Source: Syncephalis fuscata (lineage: Eukaryota > Zoopagomycota > Zoopagomycetes > Zoopagales > Piptocephalidaceae). From it: a stretch of 64,000 nt of DNA. The translations under genes and the position numbers were made by a program. The DNA is taken from contig JAHLTZ010000011.1 of assembly GCA_025786725.1 (NCBI GenBank), positions 558,001 to 622,000 on the forward strand, in the 5' to 3' direction. The notes beneath the pieces were generated by a model. The model saw nothing but the letters and a program-made list of their open reading frames with translations. It was not told where the DNA came from and did no database searches. Each line of letters opens with the position of its first letter. Position 1 is the first letter of the stretch. Shown piece after piece: positions 13,750-62,254 of this stretch.

Positions 13750-15237
<1,488 letters not shown>

Positions 15238-47225: not shown

Positions 47226-47723
47226 GTAATCAAATAATCATTATTGTGGTCAATCCAATTTAGTGCTATGACATTAATTATATAAAGCTTATTTCATGTT
47301 GTTTTGAATTAATTAAAATAATATGAATAGTGATAAACATTTACAGCTTATTGTATGATGCACTGTTATTATAAAATACACACATAATTAAATAAATGTA
47401 TTAATAGTTACTTACACATATTGAAAACGATGTATGTTAAAATCTAGAATGGTAGGATATATATAGCCAAAGAATAACTAGCCAGTGACTTGTTACAAAC
47501 TGGCATCAGGCATAATAGTTAAATAGGAAAGATAAAGCATAAATAATAATGTTGATACAATGGCGCTCACTCATCGTTAAATACGCATTGAAATAGCTGA
47601 AAATAGAAAATACAAAAGAAGCAAAGTAGTGAATGCAATAGGAAGAATAAAACAGCTTATACGAAACAACAATAGTTGCTGCCTAATTAAAAGCAAATAA
47701 AGTATATAAAATACAGTACTTGC

Positions 47724-48074
47724 CCTGAAGCATAGGCTGTCGGTGTGGGCTGCGACAATGCTTGCGCCATTACCTGGTTTCTAATAACGATGAGTTAAAA
47801 AGACTACTTGGTGCGTTATTCAGCTAAAAGGATACAAAACGACCGCCAACTACAAAGGCGACGATGGCGCTTTGATTACGCGTAAAGTAGTAGCGACCAC
47901 CAGCCGTTATCGACCAGCAATCGCGTTCATTCAGCTTCTTAAATCCGTGCTTGGTCAGACGTTCACGGCATTGATTCACCGCGTGGAACGGTGAAGGTGA
48001 ATTGCGAAGAAACGCAAAAAGTCGGTTAGTTGACCAGAGGAAGTTTGTGCAGTGACCGAGGTAATAGCCGACAT
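47724..48074 (-). pseudogene. Truncated M18 aspartyl aminopeptidase, left-arm copy
   Basis: From ATG 48072-48074 the frame runs through a short leader to the conserved M18 start: RNSPSPFHAVNQCRERLTKH, ITAGGRYYFTRNQS, IVAFVVGGRF. An intron then leads to a second exon with GNGASIVAAHTDSLCFR ending at 47724, where HTDS contains the first zinc-ligand His. The rest of the enzyme (over 350 residues) is absent. A one-base loss in a T-run (DFLRF/LRNSP) is present in both arms. Cytosolic or vacuolar M18 peptidases remove N-terminal Asp/Glu; this piece cannot be active. Confidence 0.75.
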
Positions 48075-48584
48075 TGTACGAAACAAAGGTATTTGCATTC
48101 GAAAGCGAGTATTGTTGTGGTATGGAGTAAGATGGTTTGGATAATAAGGTGACCGTGAATGTGAATAATTGCAGTAAAGGCGAACACGTCACCGTAATTA
48201 AACAATGCCATAAATGGCATAAAAGAGATAGCTTCATAAAATATTTCTTTAATATCGAAATTGTGTATTTTATTTAAGCATTAGAAGCTATTTTACTCTG
48301 AGTCTCTATACTTAAACTGAAGGATAAAAAATCCATAATTCAAATAGTAAACTGCCCATCAGTTTTTAATACTGAAAAGTACTATTTGTTGAAGCAGTGC
48401 CACATCAACTCTGATTAATGCAAATGAAGATGAATCAGTCCGCATTATTTTCAATATATGATATTAGTAGTAATAAATATTATAGTATTCCATGTTACAA
48501 TAAAATATAATAAATAGATAAATGTTAATTCATATTATTGTTGCTGTAAAGTATTCAAAGCATTATAATTTAATATTTAATGTC

Positions 48585-48690
48585 ACTTACCATCCAGTTC
48601 CATGTTTAGTAGAACAACACTGTGTAGTTAATCAAGTAAAAATGTCAATTTCGGTCTTTTGACACTAAATCACATGAGTGTACTAATAAA
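48585..48690 (-). repeat. Dispersed short element, copy 2
   Basis: Same element as at 47165, in the opposite orientation, with ATG at 48601-48603 and GATGGTAAGTGACATT. It lies upstream of, and in the same direction as, the M18 fragment, so it may be an old first exon and promoter. Confidence 0.6.
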
Positions 48691-48965
48691 TTATTTAATA
48701 TTAGTGAGCTATTTACTTTCATATTTTTATTTATTTATTTCACCGCCTTTTCTTATAACTATTTTATTGTTTTATTTAGTAATATATTATATAATGCCGA
48801 ATATGACAATATAAATAACATGTGCATTCGAATATCAATAAAAGACACTATTCGATCCTAGTCTTTATTTCTCTTATTTACATCAACACCTGCTCAAGTA
48901 ATCTCAACGGCATGCCGTATCTTCTGGTTACAACTGTCGCCCCAAGATCTTCCTGGCGAAGACAC

Positions 48966-49103
48966 TTAGCCTATCATTATTGCATATGGTGGAGGTAGAT
49001 TTGCTTCATCGATGGTCGGCAAAGCATCTGCACCTACAAGTCGATACCAAGAATGCTCAAGACAATGGTGAACATCAGAAATGCTAGTCGTCCTACCTTT
49101 TTG
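48966..49103 (-). pseudogene. Short conserved open fragment (HSWYR motif), left arm
   Basis: An open stretch of 46 codons containing SDVHHCLEHSWYRLVGADAL and then TIDEANLPPPYA. It looks like a piece of an extracellular domain with Cys and Trp and is mirrored at 60364-60501. No start or other exons found. I do not recognise the family with confidence. Confidence 0.4.
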
Positions 49104-49234
49104 TCACCCTAGACGAGTATCTTACATGGTAAATCTCCCATAATACAATATTAAAATATTAGAAAATAGAAAAGATCATTCAGTCGCAAGAAATCACACT
49201 GTTGTAGTAGCAGCAATAACAACAGCGAAACGAC

Positions 49235-49624
49235 ATGGAATTGCGATCAATGGCTTTTATTAATATTCTATCAATCTTTTTACGCATAGCCAACAACAAC
49301 AATGATTGGTCTCGTGAATTTCAAAGTAATCAAATGGAAACATTGTAGCAATGTTTTTTGTACATAATAGCATTAACTTCAGTTGGAGTTAATTTTGCTT
49401 TGAGGATTCAAATTATGAGAGTCAAAGTACAATTGGAAATTTTTGAAAGGCTAAAAATGCCTGATAAGAAAAAAGTTAATTACAATAAATACAACAATTT
49501 TAATTTGAAGCTTTATTTACATAATTTAATTAGTTATAGTAATATCAACAGCAATTCCAATCGTGTTTTATTTGTCAAAAAGACTGCCAACAATATACTA
49601 GCGGCAAATACAACTCAAAAATAA
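49235..49624 (+). pseudogene. Degenerate ORF with internal stop, left arm
   Basis: ATG 49235 opens MELRSMAFINILSIFLRIAN..., is cut by TAG near 49346, and continues in the same frame (IALTSVGVNFALRIQIMRVK, then a Lys/Asn-rich part) to TAA at 49624. The mirrored copy at 59843-60232 has the same TAG and one more stop. Not recognised; possibly remains of a mobile element protein. Confidence 0.4.
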
Positions 49625-50981
49625 AATACAAAAACATGGTCTGTAAGGATTATTATTAATAATACTGAACTAGTAGCTAATACTGAAATAAACGTTTTAT
49701 TGAAAAACAAATACAAACTACTAATGAAGCAACTATCAAAATAAATAAAGTGTAATGCAAATAAAAACGATTTAATTAATAAATAGTTTTAAATTTTAAA
49801 TTTTGATTAACAAATAAAACTAGTTTGGCTTATTTAGAGTGTTTTATATGTTAGATTTAACAATTAAACAATTCCGAATTACATGAAACTACTATTGATT
49901 TAGTAACTTGAATTAATTAGCTGGTGTATCAAACAAGAGTGAAGATATGCAAAATAATGTCGTCAACATGGAATTTGTTTTTGATAAACTAAAACAATTT
50001 ACTCGCAACATTCATTCCTAAATGCCACAACAGTCACTCTAATATTCTAATTTTAAAAGCCATGGAACGTGGCGAAAGAAGCTTAAAAGAGTGCTGTGAC
50101 GAATCATTTAAACCACTTGATTTGTATTAGATCTTATGATATTTGATTGCTTAATGCAATTTGGTAATTAAACAGCTATAATAGTCACGCATTTAACTAA
50201 ATATTTGTGTTATTGAAAGTGGAATTGAGTGGTGAGTATTATTGGTTATTAAACTATTTATTTATCATTATTATTGTACTGTACATATCTATACTGTATA
50301 CAATACTATATGGCCATCTATATCATTAATATTATAGATTATAAAACTATATTAATAAAAGCTAAAAGTCTGTTGCTAACTGTATTCTTTTGGTAGATTT
50401 GATTCATTAATCTTAGTTAATTGCTTACAGTATAGTTCCACTATCACTATTCACGTATCTAATTTGTCCATTTATTTTGTTTTATAATATTGTATGCTTT
50501 ATTGCCATGTTTTATTATCAAAGTGTCTTTATTCTAATTCCAGTATAATATTATTTGACTATATGATAATGATAGCTTTGCTACATCCATACCAATCTAT
50601 GCTTATAGCTTAGGCGATATAATTATACAAATTTTGTTATCAGTTTAACCATTTGATTGATAATTGTTGATTATTGAATGCAAATAGAACATGGTATAAA
50701 TATAGCAATTTGATTGTATATAGCTAAAATGAAACCACAAGTTTATTACTATAAATTTGCACAGTTGAATAGGGGCAACTAGATGCAAGCCTGTTGATAA
50801 AATAGTGATTCCATTGATTAAAGACTGGATAAACCGGAGCATTGGCCAAAACTTGATATATAAATAGACTGGACGGCGTAGTTGTCAAATGGTCTTGCTT
50901 TTCACCGAATATATACCTAAATTGTGTTGGACTAGTGGTTCAATTGCACTACCAATGCTAACGCCTTGAAACCATTGATTA
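49625..50981. other. 3' flank of the left micro-exon gene
   Basis: AT-rich sequence mirrored at 58503-59842. The part next to the micro-exon gene (about 50640-50981) is well conserved between arms and may be its 3' untranslated region. No gene seen. Confidence 0.45.
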
Positions 50982-53342
50982 TTCTGTATTTACAAATAAA
51001 AATATTACATGACATATAATTAATTTATAAGTTAGCAATATAAATGTTGCTTACAGCCTATTAATATTAAGTTGTTGGCGCACATAGTGGATTATATATA
51101 ATTAGTGAATAGTCGATTAACATATAATACAACTTACAATCTATTAATATTAAATAATTGGTATAATTATTAAAATTATGGTTAATGTATAGTCAGTTAA
51201 TATAAATATCACTTACCCCCTATTAATATTAAATAATTGGTACAATCAGTAAATAGCATAGTTAGTGTATAGTCAGTTAATATACAATGTCACTTACAAC
51301 CTGTTAATATTAAATAATTAATGCCATCATTAAATAACATAATTAACATATGGTCAGTTAATATACAATACAACTTACACTCTATTAATATTAAACAATT
51401 GGTACAATCAGCAAATAGCATAGTTAATTTATAGTCAGTTAATATACAATACAACTTACTTCCTATTAATATTAAATAATTAATACAATTAGTAAGTAGC
51501 ATAGTTAATTTATAGTCAATCAATATAAAATATCACTTACCAGCTATTAATATTGAATAATCGGTACAATCAATAAATAGTATAGTTAATGTATAGTCAG
51601 TTAATATACAATACAACTTACAAACTATGAATATTAAATAATTGATACAATCAGTAAATAGCGCGGTTAATGTATAGTCAGTTAGTATGCAATATAACTT
51701 ACAGTCTATTAATATTGTTATTTATATGCATAATACATGGTACATAATTAGTGCATAATCAGTTAATATATAATACAACTTACTGCCTATTAATATTAAG
51801 TTATTTATACGCATAATACATGGTACATAATTAGTGCATAATCAGTCAATATATAATACTACTTACAACCTATTAATATTAAGTTATTTATACGCATAAT
51901 ACATGGTACATAGTTAGTGCATAATCAGTTAATATATAATATTACTTACAAACTATTAATATTAAGTTATTTATACGCATAATACATGGTACATAATTAG
52001 TGCATAATCAGTTAATATATAATACAACTTACATGCTATTAATATTAAGAGCGTTATAGGCATAATACATGGTGCATAATTAATGCATAATCAGTTAATA
52101 TATAATACAACTTACGGTCTATTAATATTAAGTTATTTACACGCATAATACATGGTACATAATTAGTGCATAATCAGTTAATATATAATACAACTTACTC
52201 CCTATTAATATTAAGTTATTTATACGCATAATACATGGTAGATAGTTAGTACATAGTCAGTTAATATACAATACTAGGGGACGTTGCTAGCCCAGTTGGT
52301 AAGGCAGCGTCTCCCGAGCTGAAGGCTCCGGGTTCAAACCTCAGTTTGAATCAATCCTTAAGTGGAAAATCCCCCCTCCAGTTTTCTCTAGTTAACAAAT
52401 TGCAAACCAGAACCCAATAAGTAGGTCCGGAAACAAGACCTTGGCCAGAATAGCCGAGGAAAACCCAATTGGGACCAACTTCAAGAGAATAGTGCTGTGT
52501 AGCACCATTTAAAGGAAGATGGCCCCCGTGTAAAATCTATATGGACCAGATTTTGCGCAAAAACGTGGCAGTCCACCCGTTAAAAGTTTGGAAAAAGTCC
52601 AAATATAGTGGGAAGCAGCGCAAATTCTTTAATTATGCGCAGCGGGGGCTCACAAGCTCTTCAAAATAAAATAAAATAATATATAATACAAGGGGGACGT
52701 TGCTAGTCCAGTTGGTAAGGCAGCGTCTCCCGAGCGGGACGCTTCGTGTCCAAACTGTAGATTAAATCAATTCTTAAGTGGAAAATCCACCCCCAGTTTG
52801 CTTTAGTTAAACAATATGCAAACCAAAACCAGACAAGTAGGTCTGAAAACAAGACCTTGGCTAGAATAGCCAAGGAAAAACCAATTGGGGCCAACTTCAA
52901 GAGAATAGTGATGTGTAGCATAATTCAAAAGAAGATGGCCCCGTGTGGAATCTACATGGGCCAGATTTGCGTAACAACACGGCAGTCCACCCGTTAATTT
53001 GGAAAAGTCCAAAATAGTAGGAAGCAGCGCAAATTCTTTAATTATGCGCAGTGGGGGCTCACAAGCTTTTCAAAATATAATATAATACAACTTACATGCT
53101 ATTAATATTAAAAGAGTTGTACGTATAATACATGATACATAGTTAGTGCATGGTTAGCTAATATATAATCCAACTTACGGTCTATTAATATTAAGTTAGA
53201 AATACTGTTAGTAAATACTATTACATATTTATTGTCATTGAAACATACCACGACGAACCAAAGTTGGTTTAGCATCCACCATGGCTGTAGTGGCTATTAA
53301 AGTCACAACGACGGTGCAAATGACGGCAATGGAAAGTTTCAT
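50982..53342 (-). CDS. Micro-exon-array gene, left: secreted Cys-rich peptide precursor
   Basis: Exon 1 (53342-53249) encodes a signal peptide, MKLSIAVICTVVV..., then a short pro-part ending in Arg-Arg, and stops one base into the next codon. Seventeen exons of three bases follow, each between TAG/CAG and GTAAGT/GTAAGC; lowest coordinates 53179, 53096, 52199, 52116, 52033, 51950, 51867, 51784, 51703, 51622, 51541, 51460, 51379, 51298, 51217, 51138, 51055. The last exon starts at 50983 and supplies the stop codon at once. The 147-nt coding sequence thus spreads over 2.4 kb and 18 introns. In the phase set by exon 1 the array is open and predicts a mature peptide of 17 residues with four Cys in the pattern CC-X5-C-X2-C. 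The exon/intron reading is inference from splice-site consensus; no transcript was seen. Function unknown: signal peptide, effector or defence are all possible. Confidence 0.7.
52277..52680 (+). mobile_element. tRNA-derived SINE, copy A (left)
   Basis: About 400 bp. The head GGGGACGTTGCTAGCCCAGT with following TGGTAAGG and, downstream, GGGTTCAAACCTC resembles the A and B boxes of a tRNA gene (RNA polymerase III promoter). The tail is AAATAAAATAAAATAAT. It lies antisense to the micro-exon gene inside one micro-intron. It has no coding capacity and would depend on a LINE for movement. A short ATATAATAC-like duplication may flank it. Confidence 0.75.
52692..53080 (+). mobile_element. tRNA-derived SINE, copy B (left)
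   Basis: Second copy, about 80 percent similar to copy A, directly behind it in the same micro-intron. The B-box part is mutated (GTGTCCAAACTG). ATATAATAC occurs on both sides and may be the target-site duplication. It is nearly identical to the SINE at 56597-56978 in the right arm. Confidence 0.75.
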
Positions 53343-54837
53343 GGTGATGTTGATTTGTTAAGACAAACAAATAAGAGAGATAATAGAGTGTGGTTGATAT
53401 AAAGTAGAGTAGTGTGTGTTTAGCAAGAAGTAGAGTGTGATGAGGATATCGCAGTTGGTTGTGTATATTTTGTGGGCTATTTAAGCTTACGGCTATGCTG
53501 AGATGCCAGTATACTGTAGTATACAAGATATATCATTGATGTGTGATACAAACCAATAAAACAAGCCAATTAATGCTTTAAGGTGGGCGTGTAACAGTAG
53601 ATTTATGGCATAATAGAATGCTCCCAGTCTTGATTTTAACCTGTCCAGTCTTTACTTCAATCTGTTGGTCATTAGCGTAAGTACTGTAACGGTGTTCATA
53701 GTCCAGTACATATGGTAAAAATAGACATATAAGCCTGTATTTTTGTTACATGGTCTAACTATTTGGTCAAATAAGTATTTTGTTTGGCTTTGTAAAGCGA
53801 TAACGATGTACTTGCTGCCATTTCTACCGATTCGGTTCTCAATATCTGCATGCATACAGAATAGCACACAACACTGATACAAAAACAAGTTTAATGTATC
53901 AAAATGGGGCTTTAACACAAGTTTTTACTGCTATGTATAAATCAGCTGTAATTTTTAAATTAGAAAGTGTGTTGATTGGTACATGCATGCATTTTATTCG
54001 ACACTATGTCCATTGTTAGGGAGTAATCATTGTTTCGAATTCACGCTTGTTTTTGTACCAGTGTTGTGTGCTATTCTGTATGCATGCAGATATTGAGAAC
54101 CGAATCGGTAGAAATGGCAGCAAGTACATCGTTATCGCTTTACAAAGCCAAACAAAATACTTATTTGACCAAATAGTTAGACCATGTAACAAAAATACAG
54201 GCTTATATGTCTATTTTTACCATATGTACTGGACTATGAACACCGTTACAGTACTTACGCTAATGACCAACAGATTGAAGTAAAGACCGGACAGGTTATG
54301 CGCTGTTTTGTATGCATGCAGATATTGGGGACCAAGTCATTCAGTGGAAGCAACAGGAAAGACATCATTATTGTTTTCACAAAGCCAAACAACAATATAC
54401 TTGATTCCACCAACTAGTTAGACTATGTAACAAAAAATACAGAATAATGTACATGCCTCTATCGCATATGTACTGCTCATTGGGATTGCCGCGTCATCTG
54501 TGTAAATACCGAGAAAATTGAAGTAAAGGCTGGGCAGGTTAAATTCAAGACTGGTAAGCATGCTGTCACACCATGAATCTATTGGTACATGCGTACCGCA
54601 AATCATTAGTTCGATTGATTTATTGGTTCATATTACACATCAATAGTGTACCTCATACGCTACAGTATACTGCTATCTCAGCATAGCCGTAAGTTTAAAT
54701 AGCCCACAAAATATACACAACCAACTGCGATATCCTCATCACACTCTACTTCTTGCTAAACACACTCTACTCTCCACTCTATATCAACCACACTCTACTA
54801 TCTCTTTTTTTGTTTGTCTTAACAAATCAATATCACC
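53343..54837. promoter_or_regulatory. Bidirectional promoter region between the two micro-exon genes
   Basis: The two start codons (53342 minus, 54838 plus) face outward from this 1.5-kb region. Next to each ATG is the same CT/CA-rich leader (ATCAACCACACTCTA, TTTGTTTGTCTTAACAAATC) and, about 140 bp upstream, a TTTAAATA-like motif (54694-54701; the left copy is at 53478-53486). A block of about 250 bp with GTATGCATGCAGATATTG occurs at 53640-53890 (inverted), 54045-54297 and, diverged, 54298-54560. Open frames in it look accidental. Confidence 0.6.
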
Positions 54838-57800
54838 ATGAAGCTTTCCATTGCCGTCGTTTGCACCATTGTCGTGGCTTTGTGGCCAGTACAGCCATGT
54901 GGATGCTAACCAGCCTTAGTTCGCCGTGGTATGTTGCAATATCAATAATATGCCATAGTATCTGCTTATTAACAGTATTGCTAACTAATGGTGCTACTAG
55001 ATTGTAAGTTGTATTGCGTATAACTGTGACTGCTCACTAATTACATGTCATTCACTGTGTTCATCAACAACTTAATACTAATAGACGGTAAGTTCTATTA
55101 TATATCAATAGGGCATACACTAATTATGTGTCATGTACTGTATCCATTGACAACTTAATATTAGAGAGCTGTAAGTTATATTGTATATTAGTTGATTACT
55201 CACTAATTGCATGCTATGCACTATGTGTATCAACAACTTAATACCAATAGGCAGTAAGTGATATTGTATATTAATGACTTATAAACTAATTATACCATGT
55301 ATTGCGTGTATTAACAACTTAATGCTACAGTGAGTAAGTTGTATTGTGTATTAACTGACTGTGCTAATTGCATATCATGTATTGTGTACATCAACAATTT
55401 TTTATAATAGACAGTAAGTTGCATTCTATATTATTTATTCATTTATTTTGAAAAGCTTGTGAGCCCCCACTGCGCATAATTAAAGAATTTGTGCTGCTTC
55501 CTACTATTTTGGACTTTTCCAAACTTTTAACGGGTGGACTGTCACGTTTTTGCGCAAATCTGGTCCGTGTAGATTTCACACAAGGGCCATTTTTTTTTAA
55601 ATGGTGCTACACAGCACTATTCCCTTGAAGTTGGTCCCAATTGGGTTTTCCTCGATTATTCTGGTCAAGGTCTTGTTTCCGGACCTACTTTTGGGTTCTG
55701 GTTTGCAATTTGTTAACTAGAGAAAACTGAGGGAATCTCCACTTAAGGATTGATTTAATCTAAAGGTTGGGCGCGAAGCGTCCCGCTCAGGAGACGTCGC
55801 CTTGTCTATTGGGCTAGCAATGTATTCCTTCCCTATTTTATTTTATATTAACTGATCATATGCTAATTATACATCATGCACGTGTATACCAATAACCTGA
55901 TATTAATAGATTGTAAGTGATATTATATATTAAGTGATCATTGACTAATTATATATTATATGTTGTGTGTATCAATAACTCGATATTAATAGGCCGTAAG
56001 TATTATTATATATTAACTAATTGCTCACTGATTATATCCATGCACTGTGTGTATCAACAACTTGATATTAATAGATTGTAAGTTATACTGTGTGTTGACT
56101 AACTATACATTAATTATTGTATTTACTGATTGTACCTATTATTTAATATTGATAGGCCGTAAGTGATGTTGCATATTAACTGACTATACATTAATTATAC
56201 TATTTGTTAATGGTATTAATTATTTAATATTAATAGATGGTAAGTAGTATTGTATATTAACTGACTATACATTAACTATGCTATTTACTAATTGTACCAA
56301 CTGTTTAATATTAATAGGAGGTAAGTGGTATTTTATACTAACTAACTATACATTAATTATACTTTTTACTAATTGTACCAACTGTTTAATATTAATAGAA
56401 CGTAAGTTGTGTTGTGTATTAGTTGACTATAAATTAATCATACTATTTATTTATTGTATTGGTTATTTAATATTAATAGAAGGTAAGTTGTATTGTATAT
56501 TAAATTACTATACATCAACCATGCTATTTACTGATTGTATTGCTTATTTAATATTAATAGGATGTAAGTTGCATTGTATATTATTTATTCATTTATTAGA
56601 AAAGCTTGTGAGCCCCCACTGCGCATAATTAAAGAATTTGCGCTGCTTCCTACTATTTTGGACTTTTCCAAATTAACGGGTGGACTGCCGTGTTGTTGCG
56701 CAAATCTGGCCCATGTAGATTCCACACGGGGCCATCTTCTTTTGAATTATGCTACACATCACTATTCTCTTGAAGTTGGCCCCAATTGGTTTTTCCTTGG
56801 CTATTCTAGCCAAGGTCTTGTTTTCAGACCTACTTGTCTGGTTTTGGTTTGCATATTGTTTAACTAAAGCAAACTGGGGGTGGATTTTCCACTTAAGAAT
56901 TGATTTAATCTGAAGTTTGGACACGAAGCGTCCCGCTCGGGAGACGCTGCCTTGCCTATTGAGCTAGCAATTCCCCCTTGTATTATATATTAACTAACTA
57001 TATATTAACTATTGTTATTTAATGATTATACCAATTATTTAATATTAATAGCTGGTAAGTTTATTGTATATCAATTGACTGAGCTAATTACATGCTATTT
57101 GCTAATGATACCAATTATTTAATATTAATAGGCGGTAAGTGGTATTGTATACTAACTGACTATATACTAATTACACTATTTACTGATTGTATCAACTATT
57201 TAATATTAATAGTTTGTAAGTTGTATTGTATATTAACTGACTATACATTAACTATGCTATTTGCTGATTGTACCAATTGTTTAATATTAATAGATGGTAA
57301 GCGGTATTGTGTATTAACTGACTATACATTAACTGCTATTTACTGATTGTATCAATTATTTAATACTAATAGCCAGTAAGTGACATTTTATATTAACTGA
57401 ATATACATTAACTGCTATTTACTGCTTATACCAATTATTTGATGTAATAGTGTGTAAGTAATATTATACATTAATTGACTATATATCAACTATGTTATTT
57501 ACTGATTATACCAATTTTTTAATATTAATAGGCAGTAAGTGATATTGTATATTCCTTGACTATAAATTAACTGCTATTTATTAATTATACCAATTATTTA
57601 ATATGATAGGGAGTAAGTGATATTATACAGTAATTAGCTAAATATTAACTTTTATTTACTAATAATATTGATTATTTAATATTAATAGACAGTAAGTTGT
57701 ATTGTTTATTAACTAAACATACGCTAATTATATATTATGTACTGTATGAATAACAACATTATTAATAGGTGTAAGTAGCATTGTATATTAACTAACTATT

Positions 57801-58502
57801 AATTTTGCGATTTACTGATTGTATCAATAATTAATATTAATAGGCTGTAAGTTGTGTTGCATATCAACTGACTATGCATTAATTATATACCATGTATTGT
57901 GTGTATTAATAACTTAATATTAATAGCTTGTAAGTTATATTGTATATTGACTAGCTATTTACTAATTACATGCTATTTACTGTATCCATTAACCACTTAA
58001 TGTTAATAGCTAGTAGGTTGTGTTGCATATCAATATAACATGAGCTAATTATATACCATGTACTATATCTACCAACAACTTAATATAATAGGATGTAAGT
58101 GATATTGTATATTAATTAATTAATTACTAATTATATGTTATCCATCATGTGTACAACAACTTAATACAAATAGGCCGTAGGTAACATTTTATATTGATTA
58201 ATTACTTACTAATTGCATGTTATGCACCATGTGTACCAACAACTTAATATAATAGATGGTAAGTGTATTGTTATTAATTAATTAATTACTAATCACGTCT
58301 TATGCACCATGTGTACCAACAATTAATATTAATAGAATGTAAGTGTATTGTGTATTAATTAATTATTTACTAATTACATCTTATGCACCGTGTACCAACA
58401 ATTAATATTAATAGACTGTAAGTGCATTGTATATTGCTAACTTATAAATTAATTATATACATGTACTATCTTTATTTATAAATGCAGGGACCCACGTCAT
58501 AA
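54838..58502 (+). CDS. Micro-exon-array gene, right: secreted Cys-rich peptide precursor
   Basis: Exon 1 (54838-54928) matches the left gene's signal-peptide exon but lacks three single bases in short runs, so residues 17-29 read out of frame and hit a stop; the frame is regained before GTATGT. Then come 33 micro-exons starting at 55002, 55085, 55165 (6 nt), 55251, 55331, 55411, 55910, 55993, 56075, 56156, 56237, 56318, 56399, 56480, 56561, 57052, 57132, 57213, 57294, 57373, 57451, 57532, 57610, 57689, 57769 (2 nt), 57844, 57927, 58010, 58092, 58174, 58256, 58336 and 58415. The last exon begins at 58488 with a stop at 58500-58502. In the phase fixed by exon 1 the array has no internal stop over about 38 codons and predicts a peptide with Cys in the pattern C-X3-C-X-C-X11-C. 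Exon sizes sum to a multiple of three. The 2-nt exon may be a triplet with one base lost. No transcript evidence. Confidence 0.62.
55441..55838 (-). mobile_element. tRNA-derived SINE, copy A-like (right)
   Basis: Reverse-oriented SINE of about 400 bp inside the micro-intron between micro-exons 6 and 7. The head GGGCTAGCAATG-like end is at 55815-55838 and the tail next to 55441. Like the left copies it is antisense to the host gene. Confidence 0.7.
56597..56978 (-). mobile_element. tRNA-derived SINE, copy B-like (right)
   Basis: Reverse-oriented SINE between micro-exons 15 and 16. Almost identical to the left copy B at 52692-53080, although it sits at a different place in the array. Confidence 0.72.
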
Positions 58503-59842
58503 GAGCATTACATTGGTAGTGCAATCAAGCCACTAGTCCAATACAATTTAGGTATATATTCGGTGAAAAGCAAGACCATTTGACAACTACGCCGTCCAGT
58601 CTATTTATATATCAAGTTTTGGCCAATGCTCCGGTTTATCCAGTCTTTAATCAATGGAATCACTATTTTATCAACAGGCTTGCATCTAGTTGCCCCTATT
58701 CAACTGTGCAAATTTATAGTAATAAACTTGTGATTTCATTTTAGCTATATACAATCAAATTGCTATATTTATACCCATGTTCTATTTGCATTCAATAATC
58801 AACAATTATCAATCAAATGGTTAAACTGATAACAAAATTTGTATAATTATATCGCCTAAGCTATAGCATAGATTGGTATGGATGTAGCAAAGCTATCATT
58901 ATCATATAGTCAAATAATATTATACTGGAATTAGAATAAAGACACTTTGATAATAAAACATGGCAATAAAGCATACAATATTATAAAACAAAATAAATGG
59001 ACAAATTAGATACGTGAATAGTGATAGTGAACTATACTGTATGCAATTAACTAAGATTAATGAATCAAATCTACCAAAAGAATACAGTTAGCAACAGACT
59101 TTTAGCTTTTATTAATATAGTTTTATAATCTATAATATTAATGATATAGATGGCCATATAGTATTGTATACAGTATAGATATGTACAGTACAATAATAAT
59201 GATAAATAAATAGTTTAATAACCAATAATACTCACCACTCAATTCCACTTTCAATAACACAAATATTTAGTTAAATGCGTGACTATTATAGCTGTTTAAT
59301 TACCAAACTGCATTAAGCAATCAAATATCATAAGATTTAATACAAATCAAGTGGCTTAAATGATTCGTCACAGCACTCTTTTAAGCTTCTTTCGCCACGT
59401 TCCATGGCTTTTAAAATTAGAATATTAGAGTGACTGTTGTGGCATTTAGGAATGAATGTTGCGAGTAAATTGTTTTAGTTTATCAAAAACAAATTCCATG
59501 TTGACGACATTATTTTGCATATCTTCACTCTTGTTTGATACACCAGCTAATTAATTCAAGTTACTTAAAGCAATAGTAATTTCATGTAATTCGGAATTGT
59601 TTAATTGTTAAATCTAACATATAAAACACTCTAAATAAGCCAAACTAGTTTTATTTGTTGATCAAAATTTAAAATTTAAAACTATTTATTAATTAAATCG
59701 TTTTTATTTGCATTACACTTTATTTATTTTGATAGTTGCTTCATTAGTAGTTTGTATTTGTTTTTCAATAAAACGTTTATTTCAGTATTAGCTACTAGTT
59801 CATATTATTAATAATAATCCTTACAGACCATGTTTTTGTATT
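58503..59842. other. 3' flank of the right micro-exon gene
   Basis: Mirror of 49625-50981. The first ~350 bp are conserved between arms and may be a 3' untranslated region. No gene seen. Confidence 0.45.
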
Positions 59843-60232
59843 TTATTTTTGAGTTGTATTTGCCGCTAGTAGATTGTTGGCAGTCTTTTTGACAAATAAA
59901 ACACGATTGGAATTGCTGTTGATATTACTATAACTAATTAAATTATGTAAATAAAGCTTCAAATTAAAATTTTTGTATTTATTGTAATTAAGTTTTTTCT
60001 TATCAGGCATTTTTAGCCTTTCAAAAATTTCCAATTGTACTTTGACTCTCATAATTTAAATCCTCAAAGCAAAATTAGCTCCAACTGAAGTTAATGCTAT
60101 TATGTACAAAAAACATTGCTACAATGTTTCCATTTGATTACTTTGAAATTCACGAGACCAATCATTGTTGTTGTTGGCTATGCGTAAAAAGCTTGATAGA
60201 ATATTAATAAAAGCCATTGATCGCAATTCCAT
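59843..60232 (-). pseudogene. Degenerate ORF with internal stops, right arm
   Basis: Mirror of 49235-49624. It shares the internal TAG after METL and has an extra in-frame TAA (ATTTAAATT instead of ATTCAAATT). Further amino-acid changes show that it is no longer constrained. Confidence 0.4.
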
Positions 60233-60363
60233 GTCGTTTCGCTGTTGTTATTGCTGCTACTACAACAGTGTGATTTCTTGCGACTGAATGATCTTTTCTA
60301 TTTTCTAATATTTTAATATTGTATTATGGGAGATTTACCATGTAAGATACTCGTCTAGGGTGA

Positions 60364-60501
60364 CAAAAAGGTAGGACGACTAGCATTTCTGATGTTCACC
60401 ATTGTCTTGAGCATTCTTGGTATCGACTTGTAGGTGCAGATGCTTTGCCGACCATCGATGAAGCAAATCTACCTCCACCATATGCAATAATGATAGGCTA
60501 A
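60364..60501 (+). pseudogene. Short conserved open fragment (HSWYR motif), right arm
   Basis: Mirror of 48966-49103, with the same 46 open codons. No complete gene around it. Confidence 0.4.
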
Positions 60502-60799
60502 GTGTCTTCGCCAGGAAGATCCTGGGGCGACAGTTGTAACCAGAAGATACGGCATGCCGTTGAGATTACTTGAGCAGGTGTTGATGTAAATAAGAGAAAT
60601 AAAGACTAGGAATCGAATAGTGTCTTTTATTGATATTCGAATGCACATGTTATTTATATTGTCATATTCGGCATTATTATATAATATATTACTAAATAAA
60701 ACAATAAAATAGTTATAAGAAAAGGCGGTGAAATAAATAAATAAAAATATGAAAGTAAATAGCTCACTAATATTAAATAATTTATTAGTACACTCATGT

Positions 60800-60890
60800 G
60801 ATTTAGTGTCAAAAGACCGAAATTGACATTTTTTACTTGATTGAACTACACAGCTGTTGTTCTACTAAACATGGAACTGGATGGTAAGTG
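60800..60890 (+). repeat. Dispersed short element, copy 3
   Basis: Mirror of the copy at 48585-48690. ATG at 60871-60873, then GAACTGGATGGTAAGTGACA, which reads as a short exon with a donor site. Confidence 0.6.
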
Positions 60891-61399
60891 ACATTAAATA
60901 TTAAATTATAATGCTTTGAATACTTTACAGCAACAATAATATGAATTAACATTTATCTATTTATTATATTTTATTGTAACATGGAATACTATAATATTTA
61001 TTACTACTAATATCATATATTGAAAATAATGCGGACTGATTCATCTTCATTTGCATTAATCAGAGTTGATGTGGCACTGCTTCAACAAATAGTACTTTTC
61101 AGTATTAAAAACTGATGGGCAGTTTACTATTTGAATTATGGATTTTTTATCCTTCAGTTTAAGTATAGAGACTCAGAGTAAAATAGCTTCTAATGCTTAA
61201 ATAAAATACACAATTTCGATATTAAAGAAATATTTTATGAAGCTATCTCTTTTATGCCATTTATGGCATTGTTTAATTACGGTGACGTGTTCGCCTTTAC
61301 TGCAATTATTCACATTCACAGCCACCTTATTATCCAAACCATCTTACTCCATACCACAACAATACTCGCTTTCGAATGCAAATACCTTTGTTTCGTACA

Positions 61400-61750
61400 A
61401 TGTCGGCTATTACCTCGGTCACTGCACAAACTTCCTCTGGTCAACTAACCGACTTTTTGCGTTTCTTCGCAATTCACCTTCACCGTTCCACGCGGTGAAT
61501 CAATGCCGTGAACGTCTGACCAAGCACGGATTTAAGAAGCTGAATGAACGCGATTGCTGGTCGATAACGGCTGGTGGTCGCTACTACTTTACGCGTAATC
61601 AAAGCACCATCGTCGCCTTTGTAGTTGGCGGTCGTTTTGTATCCTTTTAGCTGAATAACGCACCAAGTAGCCTTTTTAACTCATCGTTATTAGAAACCAG
61701 GTAATGGCGCAAGCATTGTCGCAGCCCACACCGACAGCCTATGCTTCAGG
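61400..61750 (+). pseudogene. Truncated M18 aspartyl aminopeptidase, right-arm copy
   Basis: Mirror of 47724-48074. Exon 1 from ATG 61400 to 61638 and exon 2 from 61694 to 61750 end after HTDSLCFR, followed by GCAAGT, a possible GC donor. No later M18 exons follow. It carries the same T-run base loss as the left copy. Confidence 0.75.
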
Positions 61751-62254
61751 GCAAGTACTGTATTTTATATACTTTATTTGCCTTTTAATTAGGCAGCAAC
61801 TATTGTTGTTTCGTATAAGCTGTTTTATTCTTCCTATTGCATTCACTACTTTGCTTCTTTTGTATTTTCTATTTTCAGCTATTTCAATGCGTATTTAACG
61901 ATGAGTGAGCGCCATTGTATCAACATTATTATTTATGCTTTATCTTTCCTATTTAACTATTATGCCTGATGCCAGTTTGTAACAAGTCACTGGCTAGTTA
62001 TTCTTTGGCTATATATATCCTACCATTCTACATTTTAACATACATCGTTTTCAATATGTGTAAGTAACTATTAATACATTTATTTAATTATGTGTGTATT
62101 TTATAATAACAGTGCATCATACAATAAGCTGTAAATGTTTATCACTATTCATATTATTTTAATTAACTCACAACAACATGAAATAAGCTTTATATGATTA
62201 ATGTCGTAGCACTAAATTGGATTGACCACAATAATGATTATTTGATTACTGATG

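What the first reader, a model, noticed from the sequence alone, without database searches (positions are those of the whole stretch)
50982..58502. Two genes built from long runs of three-nucleotide exons
Both arrays consist of units in which TTAATATTAATAG is followed by exactly three variable bases and then GTAAGT. In the left array all 17 units fit; in the right, 31 of 33 fit, with one of 6 nt and one of 2 nt. Each array lies between a signal-peptide exon with its own donor and a last exon with its own acceptor. Read as exons, the triplets give an open frame ending in a stop at the very start of the last exon in both genes. Single 3-nt exons are known in eukaryotes, and micro-exon genes exist in schistosomes and aphids, but I know of no described gene made of dozens of consecutive 3-nt exons. 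This is the strongest candidate for a new system here.
Basis: partly seen in the sequence, partly recalled or inferred. Interest (0 to 1): 0.97.

Follow-up and report, generated by a model that had tools for sequence, protein, structure and literature searches.

The report
Peptide genes split codon by codon
A fungus that parasitises other fungi carries many genes for small, apparently secreted and often cysteine-rich peptides in which almost every amino acid of the mature peptide sits on its own three-letter exon, so dozens of introns must be removed to read one short peptide.

Summary
The genome is Syncephalis fuscata, a Zoopagales mycoparasite. Genome-wide, TTAATATTAATAG-N3-GTAAGT occurs 950 times, against 4 with N0-2 and 2 with N4-30. 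A decoder blind to reading frame found 996 micro-exons in 40 arrays; 942 are 3 nt, 40 are 6 nt. Spliced in order they give cysteine-rich frames: 5 stops against 48.1±5.5 and 134 cysteines against 64.2±6.0 when exon order is shuffled, 0 of 2000 shuffles reaching either. The same signal-type exon and 3' exon also occur in intronless paralogues, natural stand-ins for cDNA; one matches directly (CKCQDEDGNCTSC spliced, CKCRDDDGYCTSC intronless). So the triplets are coding exons, joined in order in phase 1. The window's left gene is intact and would yield DPWNPFCCNFSGKCWDC after an RR site; alone it is too short to be significant. The right gene is a decayed copy (stop in exon 1, 2-nt exon). Not shown: RNA. 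Inferred: stepwise intron-definition splicing adding one codon per step, and a role as diversifying effectors. Ten literature searches found no described gene like it.

The parts
53249..53342 (-). Left gene, exon 1: MKLSIAVICTVVVTLIATTAMVDAKPTLVRR plus the first base (G) of the next codon; signal-peptide-like by eye, ends in an RR (Kex2-type) site; donor GTATGT
   Evidence: 150 of 150 scored places in the genome match it, this one included
51055..53181 (-). Left gene, 17 consecutive 3-nt exons (phase 1): 53179-53181, 53096-53098, 52199-52201, 52116-52118, 52033-52035, 51950-51952, 51867-51869, 51784-51786, 51703-51705, 51622-51624, 51541-51543, 51460-51462, 51379-51381, 51298-51300, 51217-51219, 51138-51140, 51055-51057; spliced mature peptide DPWNPFCCNFSGKCWDC
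50693..50983 (-). Left gene, last exon (starts at 50983 with AATAATC; stop TAA made by the junction T|AA) and conserved 3' region; lower limit taken from the inverted-repeat arm, the transcript end was not determined
   Evidence: a last-exon query matches 40 of 40 scored places
54838..54928 (+). Right gene, exon 1, with an in-frame stop (TAA) before the donor: broken
55001..58417 (+). Right gene, 33 consecutive micro-exons: 31 of 3 nt, one of 6 nt (55165-55170), one of 2 nt (57769-57770); all coordinates
58488..58775 (+). Right gene, last exon and conserved 3' region (acceptor ...AAATGCAG); upper limit taken from the inverted-repeat arm
52274..53077 (-). Two SINE-like insertions with a tRNA-like head (by eye) inside the third intron (894 nt) of the left gene; strand given is that of the gene
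   Evidence: (pair I5, 97%); ARAGORN calls no tRNA; outer limits approximate
55437..55845 (+). SINE-like insertion in the seventh intron (496 nt) of the right gene; strand given is that of the gene
   Evidence: limits by eye
56590..56985 (+). SINE-like insertion in the sixteenth intron (488 nt) of the right gene; strand given is that of the gene
   Evidence: limits approximate
47500..61975 (.). Inverted duplication that holds both genes: outer arms 98-100% complementary, array stretches 73-87% (25 longest of 58 pairs seen)

Best explanation
These are protein-coding genes of a large family of apparently secreted, often cysteine-rich peptides of the mycoparasitic fungus Syncephalis fuscata. Exon 1 encodes a signal-peptide-like stretch plus a short propeptide ending in RR and gives the first base of the next codon. 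The mature peptide is then encoded by consecutive exons of almost always 3 nt, sometimes 6 nt (11 to 45 exons in the 26 longer arrays, 17 in the left window gene), all in phase 1, so each codon is completed across a splice junction. A last exon gives the stop and the 3' region. Shown by sequence: the triplets are coding, in this order and this frame; the intervening units are about 78 nt with GT-AG or a few GC-AG borders; genes of the same family exist in intronless form. Inferred: the spliceosome removes the short introns by intron definition, probably from the 5' end, so that each step extends the upstream exon by one codon's worth and exposes the next GTAAGT (a ratchet like recursive splicing that leaves a 3-nt footprint); the peptide is freed at RR by a Kex2-type protease and acts outside the cell, most likely on the fungal host. 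Gain or loss of a unit changes the peptide by one residue without frameshift.
For: Length exactness: 950 N3 matches against 6 of other lengths from 0 to 30. Frame-blind decoding: 942 of 996 exons 3 nt, 40 of 6 nt. Order shuffling on all 40 arrays without filter: 5 stops against 48.1±5.5, 134 Cys against 64.2±6.0, 0 of 2000 shuffles. In the 21 arrays of at least 15 exons with all lengths divisible by 3, phase 1 gives 1 stop and 95 Cys, phase 0 gives 6 and 3, phase 2 gives 69 and 30, and the six-Cys pattern occurs 7 times against a shuffled mean of 0.001. Micro-exons of those arrays are about 46% G+C, introns 24%. Intronless paralogues run from the same exon 1 through the peptide into the same 3' exon (8 of 8 loci). 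Spliced C13:299645 (28 micro-exons) matches intronless L118, L110 and L104 (best score 70, shuffles 27.2±4.3, 0 of 300); Cys spacing 2-3-13-3-5 is the same in split C267:484667 and intronless L049. At least 12 split/intronless changes on a tree of 85 genes, 5 forced by starred branches. One ordinary intron of this genome (GAPDH-like gene in the window) is 74 nt, a similar size.
Against: No RNA was available. The window genes alone are not significant: left, shuffles reach 0 stops in 971 and at least 4 Cys in 298 of 5000; right, 504 and 586 of 5000. 10 of 40 arrays hold an exon not a multiple of 3 and 4 of 40 an in-frame stop, so part of the family is decayed or misread. Of 36 arrays of at least 12 exons tested (right window gene left out), 26 do not beat all 300 shuffles in the match to intronless peptides, the left window gene among them (72 of 300 as good). 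11 introns of 149-162 nt probably hide an undetected unit. Public gene models at split genes that I could place do not contain the triplets (P0004, P0008, P0012). Only 10 of 20 further loci judged intronless show the 3'-exon motif near the stop. Signal peptide and Kex2 site were judged by eye.
Confidence: 0.9

Rival explanations
1. The exons are coding but optional: regulated or noisy skipping of 3-nt exons yields many peptide variants from one gene, as proposed for schistosome micro-exon genes.
For: The arrays keep one phase and 985 of 996 exons are multiples of 3, so most subsets stay in frame; schistosome MEGs are described as using alternative splicing of small symmetrical exons (PMC4350168, passages). 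Some intronless members are short (12-25 residues: L086, L094, L096, L099) and could be read as copies of skipped forms.
Against: Conserved cysteine number and spacing, and lengths of six-or-more-Cys peptides near those of intronless paralogues (medians 34 of 11 split and 39 of 16 intronless), point to full inclusion as the selected product.
Confidence: 0.2
2. The arrays are relics: once coding and spliced, now mostly untranscribed pseudogenes spread by tandem and segmental duplication.
For: The right window gene is broken; 10 of 40 arrays have a frame-breaking exon length and 4 of 40 an in-frame stop; several copies are near-identical duplicates.
Against: 28 of 40 arrays have neither lesion (10 and 4 genes, two shared); of 107 unit pairs with both flanking introns at least 95% identical, 100 triplets are identical and none of the 8 changed bases lies at codon position 3 (pairs not independent).
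Confidence: 0.08
3. The intervening units are removed at the DNA level (like ciliate IES), not by splicing.
For: DNA alone fits any precise excision; intronless copies exist.
Against: Borders look spliceosomal (973 GT and 23 GC of 996, AG at the other end; the decoder demands these), exon 1 has a GTATG donor and the last exon an ordinary CAG acceptor; programmed excision of this kind in fungi is unknown to me (recalled, not searched).
Confidence: 0.02
4. A non-coding tandem repeat whose 3-bp variable slot has another cause (chance or assembly).
For: Neighbouring units are similar in sequence; the window genes alone do not pass the shuffle test.
Against: Family-wide order-shuffle test, phase dependence and intronless homologues.
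Confidence: 0.01

Closest known systems
Schistosome micro-exon genes (MEGs)
   Same: Parasite genes whose coding region is mostly very small symmetrical exons, products found in secretions (PMC4350168, PMC7263636, passages; a usual exon range of about 6-36 nt is recalled)
   Different: Here nearly every exon is 3 nt, dozens in a row, in one phase, with similar tandem introns; a fungus; no sequence relation found
Aphid bicycle genes (and the megacycle gene)
   Same: Putative effectors with many small internal exons that almost all start at codon position 2, as here (PMC9168663, passages)
   Different: About 17 exons on average; 3-nt arrays are not described in the passages I read; no sequence relation found
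Isolated 1-3-nt exons (CYP621A in Fusarium, RPS24 in humans, lipS in Dactylellina)
   Same: Exons of 1-3 nt exist; the fungal 1-nt one is supported by reads and by an intronless homologue (PMC12940212; PMC11162997; PMC5639578; passages only)
   Different: Those are one or two such exons in an otherwise ordinary gene; here almost the whole mature peptide is made of them
Recursive splicing (zero-length exons; recalled)
   Same: A 3' splice site followed almost at once by a new 5' splice site, allowing stepwise removal
   Different: Each step here would leave 3 coding bases; stepwise order is inferred, not shown

Membership tests
[quoted passage not shown]
   942 of 996 exons 3 nt, 40 of 6 nt, 3 of 9 nt; 11 not multiples of 3
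Micro-exon gene (structural class) | Secreted: signal-peptide exon at the 5' end | tested here: inconclusive
   Conserved MKLSIAV..VDA exon 1 judged by eye; no signal-peptide predictor was run
Micro-exon gene (structural class) | Alternative splicing of the small exons | not testable with these tools
   No RNA data
Schistosome MEG proteins | Sequence homology | tested here: not met
   14 of 14 database hits at E up to 0.01 are Syncephalis fuscata (limited to proteins sharing exact words and of similar length)
Aphid bicycle genes | Internal exons start at codon position 2 | tested here: met
   Phase 1 fits, phases 0 and 2 do not; a shared trait, not proof of kinship
Aphid bicycle genes | Bicycle protein homology | tested here: not met
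   No non-Syncephalis hit; no Pfam family above its cut-off in 10 proteins
Scorpion short toxin (PF00451) or big defensin (PF14862) | Pfam gathering score | tested here: not met
   Two spliced peptides reach 21.7 against 25.1 and 20.1 against 25 bits; one intronless protein has a weak Gloverin match; 7 of 10 proteins have no match at E up to 0.1
Spliceosomal introns | GT or GC ... AG borders | tested here: met
   973 GT-AG and 23 GC-AG of 996 (the decoder demands these borders, so read with the pattern counts)
Recursive (stepwise) splicing | Ordered intermediates in which the upstream exon grows step by step | not testable with these tools
   No RNA data

The most novel reading that the evidence does not exclude
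A codon-by-codon gene format: the spliceosome ratchets along an array of roughly 80-bp intron-plus-codon units, each adding one codon's worth of bases. Duplicating, deleting or skipping a unit inserts or removes one residue without frameshift, making the array both a mutational engine and possibly a combinatorial generator for a mycoparasite's secreted peptide arsenal, with complete cDNA-mediated intron loss repeatedly turning arrays into compact intronless genes.
Probability: 0.25. Interest if true: 0.98.

Novelty: new variant of a known kind. Interest (0 to 1): 0.94.

Why it matters
Single 3-nt exons are curiosities; genes made of dozens in a row push splicing to a limit where 3' and 5' splice sites nearly touch at every step. 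They make it testable how a spliceosome defines introns with almost no exon, whether splicing is strictly ordered, and what its error rate is. They also show that a whole effector-like family can be missed by gene annotation: at least 3 of the 14 database proteins of this family (P0004, P0008, P0012) come from loci read here as split, and their models lack the triplets. For evolution, a unit duplication is a frame-safe single-residue insertion, a possible reason why a parasite's peptide arsenal would adopt such costly genes.

Tried and rejected
Hypermutation of the triplets: an alignment of 12 pairs of paralogues first suggested, in several of them, much faster change in triplets than in introns. 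Unit-by-unit comparison showed this is largely unit turnover and misregister; where both flanking introns are at least 95% identical only 8 of 321 bases differ (1.1% and 4.4% in two bins, against 0.4% and 2.2% in introns). The lack of any change at codon position 3 hints at selection, on few and non-independent changes.

First guess of the organism (an arbuscular mycorrhizal fungus) was wrong; protein hits with matching contig lengths (782257 and 837042 bases) gave Syncephalis fuscata. The pair C1:496442 and C1:523550, nearly identical in the 5' region, was checked for a split copy of an intronless gene; the decoder found no array after exon 1 of C1:496442. That row (L108) is still counted as split, because its frame stops soon after exon 1; 20 of the 57 split rows there were judged in this way from 700 bases only. 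Structure prediction was not tried.

Partial intron loss: none was seen, but the decoder allowed exons of at most 9 nt. The 25 introns over 100 nt are 11 of 149-162 nt (probably a missed unit) and 14 of 223-897 nt (insertions or several missed units).

Literature: ten searches of an open-licence library gave no description of micro-exons in Syncephalis or of arrays of 3-nt exons. DeMarco 2010 is not held. Papers were seen as search listings and as passages found by terms; none was read whole.
Full report
WHAT IS THERE. The left array (minus strand, 51055-53181) has 17 units with exactly 3 bases between an acceptor-like ...AG and GTAAG[TC]; the right array (plus, 55001-58417) has 33, of which 31 are 3 nt, one 6 nt and one 2 nt. 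The 13-mer is exact in 13 of 17 and 15 of 33 units, GTAAGT in 16 of 17 and 30 of 33. Both genes lie in a large inverted duplication whose outer arms are 98-100% complementary, while the array stretches are 73-87% so (25 longest of 58 pairs). SINE-like insertions sit in three introns.

NOT CHANCE, AND NOT LOCAL. In the 28.95-Mb assembly the exact pattern with N3 occurs 950 times, with N0-2 4 times, with N4-30 twice. With up to two mismatches there are 2390 matches and 2 of the reversed control. The signal exon matches at 150 of 150 scored places, out of 326 candidates, all with E below 1e-6; a last-exon query at 40 of 40 scored, out of 256. By the tool's own statement such counts are lower bounds.

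ORGANISM. A protein search with an intronless member gave two hits, both Syncephalis fuscata, on contigs of 837042 and 782257 bases, the lengths of contigs C256 and C289 here. A profile search gave 14 of 14 hits in the same species. It belongs to Zoopagales, Piptocephalidaceae; a congener is treated as a mycoparasite (PMC6784888, passages).

THE TRIPLETS ARE CODING EXONS. I decoded arrays with splice-site weight matrices and an intron-length prior, exons of 1 to 9 nt allowed, without any use of reading frame. The matrices were trained on N3 sites and a second acceptor type was added for 6-nt exons, so exon length is better judged; order and frame are free. The 40 arrays are those fetched or already in hand, not a random sample; 14 of them are cut at 1.5 kb after exon 1 or at a contig end and C2:225326 runs off its piece. 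They gave 996 exons: 942 of 3 nt, 40 of 6, 3 of 9, 8 of 2 and one each of 1, 4 and 5. Of 996 introns 971 are up to 100 nt, with a median of 78 nt and 24% G+C; micro-exons of the 21 filtered arrays are about 46%. In the models whose phase was printed exon 1 ends after the first base of a codon, so codons straddle junctions. Translating all 40 arrays gives 5 stops and 134 cysteines in 1041 codons; shuffling exon order within each gene gives 48.1±5.5 and 64.2±6.0, and 0 of 2000 shuffles reach either. For the 21 arrays of at least 15 exons with all lengths divisible by 3, the figures are 1 stop and 95 cysteines, against 6 and 3 in phase 0 and 69 and 30 in phase 2. The two window genes alone are not significant; their case rests on the family.

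INTRONLESS TWINS. Of the 30 loci fetched, eight with a long open frame were read; all eight run from a similar 5' region and exon 1 through a peptide straight into the same 3' exon. Of 40 further loci chosen for a long open frame I judged 20 intronless by eye; 10 of these 20 show the 3'-exon motif near the stop, the others have a diverged or different end. After leaving out two copies with identical proteins (L033, L047), 16 of 26 intronless peptides have six or more cysteines; of 15 split genes 11 do. Those 15 are the arrays with a located last exon and all lengths divisible by 3; the others, the right window gene included, were left out of this count. In 14 of the 15 the stop lies at the last junction or within 5 codons of it; C245:357764 stops early. 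Cysteine spacing 2-3-13-3-5 is the same in split C267:484667 and intronless L049. Split C13:299645 gives APEEGADTCKCQDEDGNCTSC..., alignable with intronless L110 and L104 (...FGACKCRDDDGYCTSC...); best score 70 (L118) against 27.2±4.3 in 300 shuffles. In the same test 10 of 36 arrays beat all shuffles, two of them near-copies, and 26 do not, the left window gene among them. On a tree of the 5' regions of 85 genes (57 split, 20 of them judged from 700 bases only; 28 intronless) the two states change at least 12 times, 5 forced by starred branches, shuffled mean about 23.5. Since the region upstream of exon 1 is shared too, intronless genes look like copies in which all introns were lost at once, as by recombination with cDNA; the opposite direction is not excluded. 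If it is loss, the cell has made fully spliced mRNAs of such genes.

HOW IT WORKS. Shown by sequence: coding, order, phase, and full inclusion as the product that fits the family. Inferred: with 3-nt exons two splice complexes can hardly sit on both sides at once; introns are short and uniform, and one ordinary intron of this genome (GAPDH-like gene, window 14282-14355, 74 nt) is of similar size, so intron definition with stepwise removal is the simplest route, each step leaving exon 1 longer by one codon's worth and next to a strong GTAAGT. The RR at the end of exon 1 suggests Kex2-type release, so that the mature peptide comes almost wholly from the triplets. Small cysteine-rich, apparently secreted peptides of a parasite suggest effectors or toxins toward the fungal host; no Pfam family passes its cut-off in 10 proteins, and for one spliced protein PDB matches are weak (best E 0.038, a scorpion toxin), so no function is assigned.

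EVOLUTION. Where both flanking introns are at least 95% identical, 100 of 107 compared triplets are identical; more distant pairs differ mainly by gain, loss and exchange of units. C24:477757 has 45 exons, all 3 nt, with runs that look like recent unit duplications (SSSSS and a repeated GNAI). Decay is common: 10 of 40 arrays have a frame-breaking exon, 4 of 40 an in-frame stop.

COMPARISON AND NOVELTY. Structurally these are micro-exon genes at the lower limit, and they share with aphid bicycle genes exons that start at codon position 2, but no sequence relation was found. The 1-3-nt exons that I found in print are one or two per gene. I therefore call it a new variant of a known kind, and a very surprising one.

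Noticed in passing
window 47500-61975: Large inverted duplication with 98-100% complementary outer arms but clearly different arrays in the centre; also a 253-nt, 99% inverted repeat at 53637-53889 and 54046-54298 between the two genes.
   Followed up: partly
window 47824-48273 (-) and 61201-61650 (+): Two copies of an ORF that looks like the N-terminus of an M18 aspartyl aminopeptidase (RNSPSPFHAV; recalled, not tested), at the outer ends of the inverted duplication.
   Followed up: no
window 52274-53077, 55437-55845, 56590-56985; similar stretches seen after array exons of L034 and L053: A SINE-like element with a tRNA-like head is repeatedly inserted inside introns of these arrays.
   Followed up: partly
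L085, L086, L094, L098, L099 (judged intronless): The same signal exon also heads mature peptides without cysteines, so the superfamily is broader than the six-cysteine type.
   Followed up: no
arrays listed: A regular class of 6-nt exons follows a shorter acceptor (...TTAATATTAG or close to it), ends mostly in AAT or ACT (16 of 22 six-nt exons listed), and is often the third micro-exon.
   Followed up: partly
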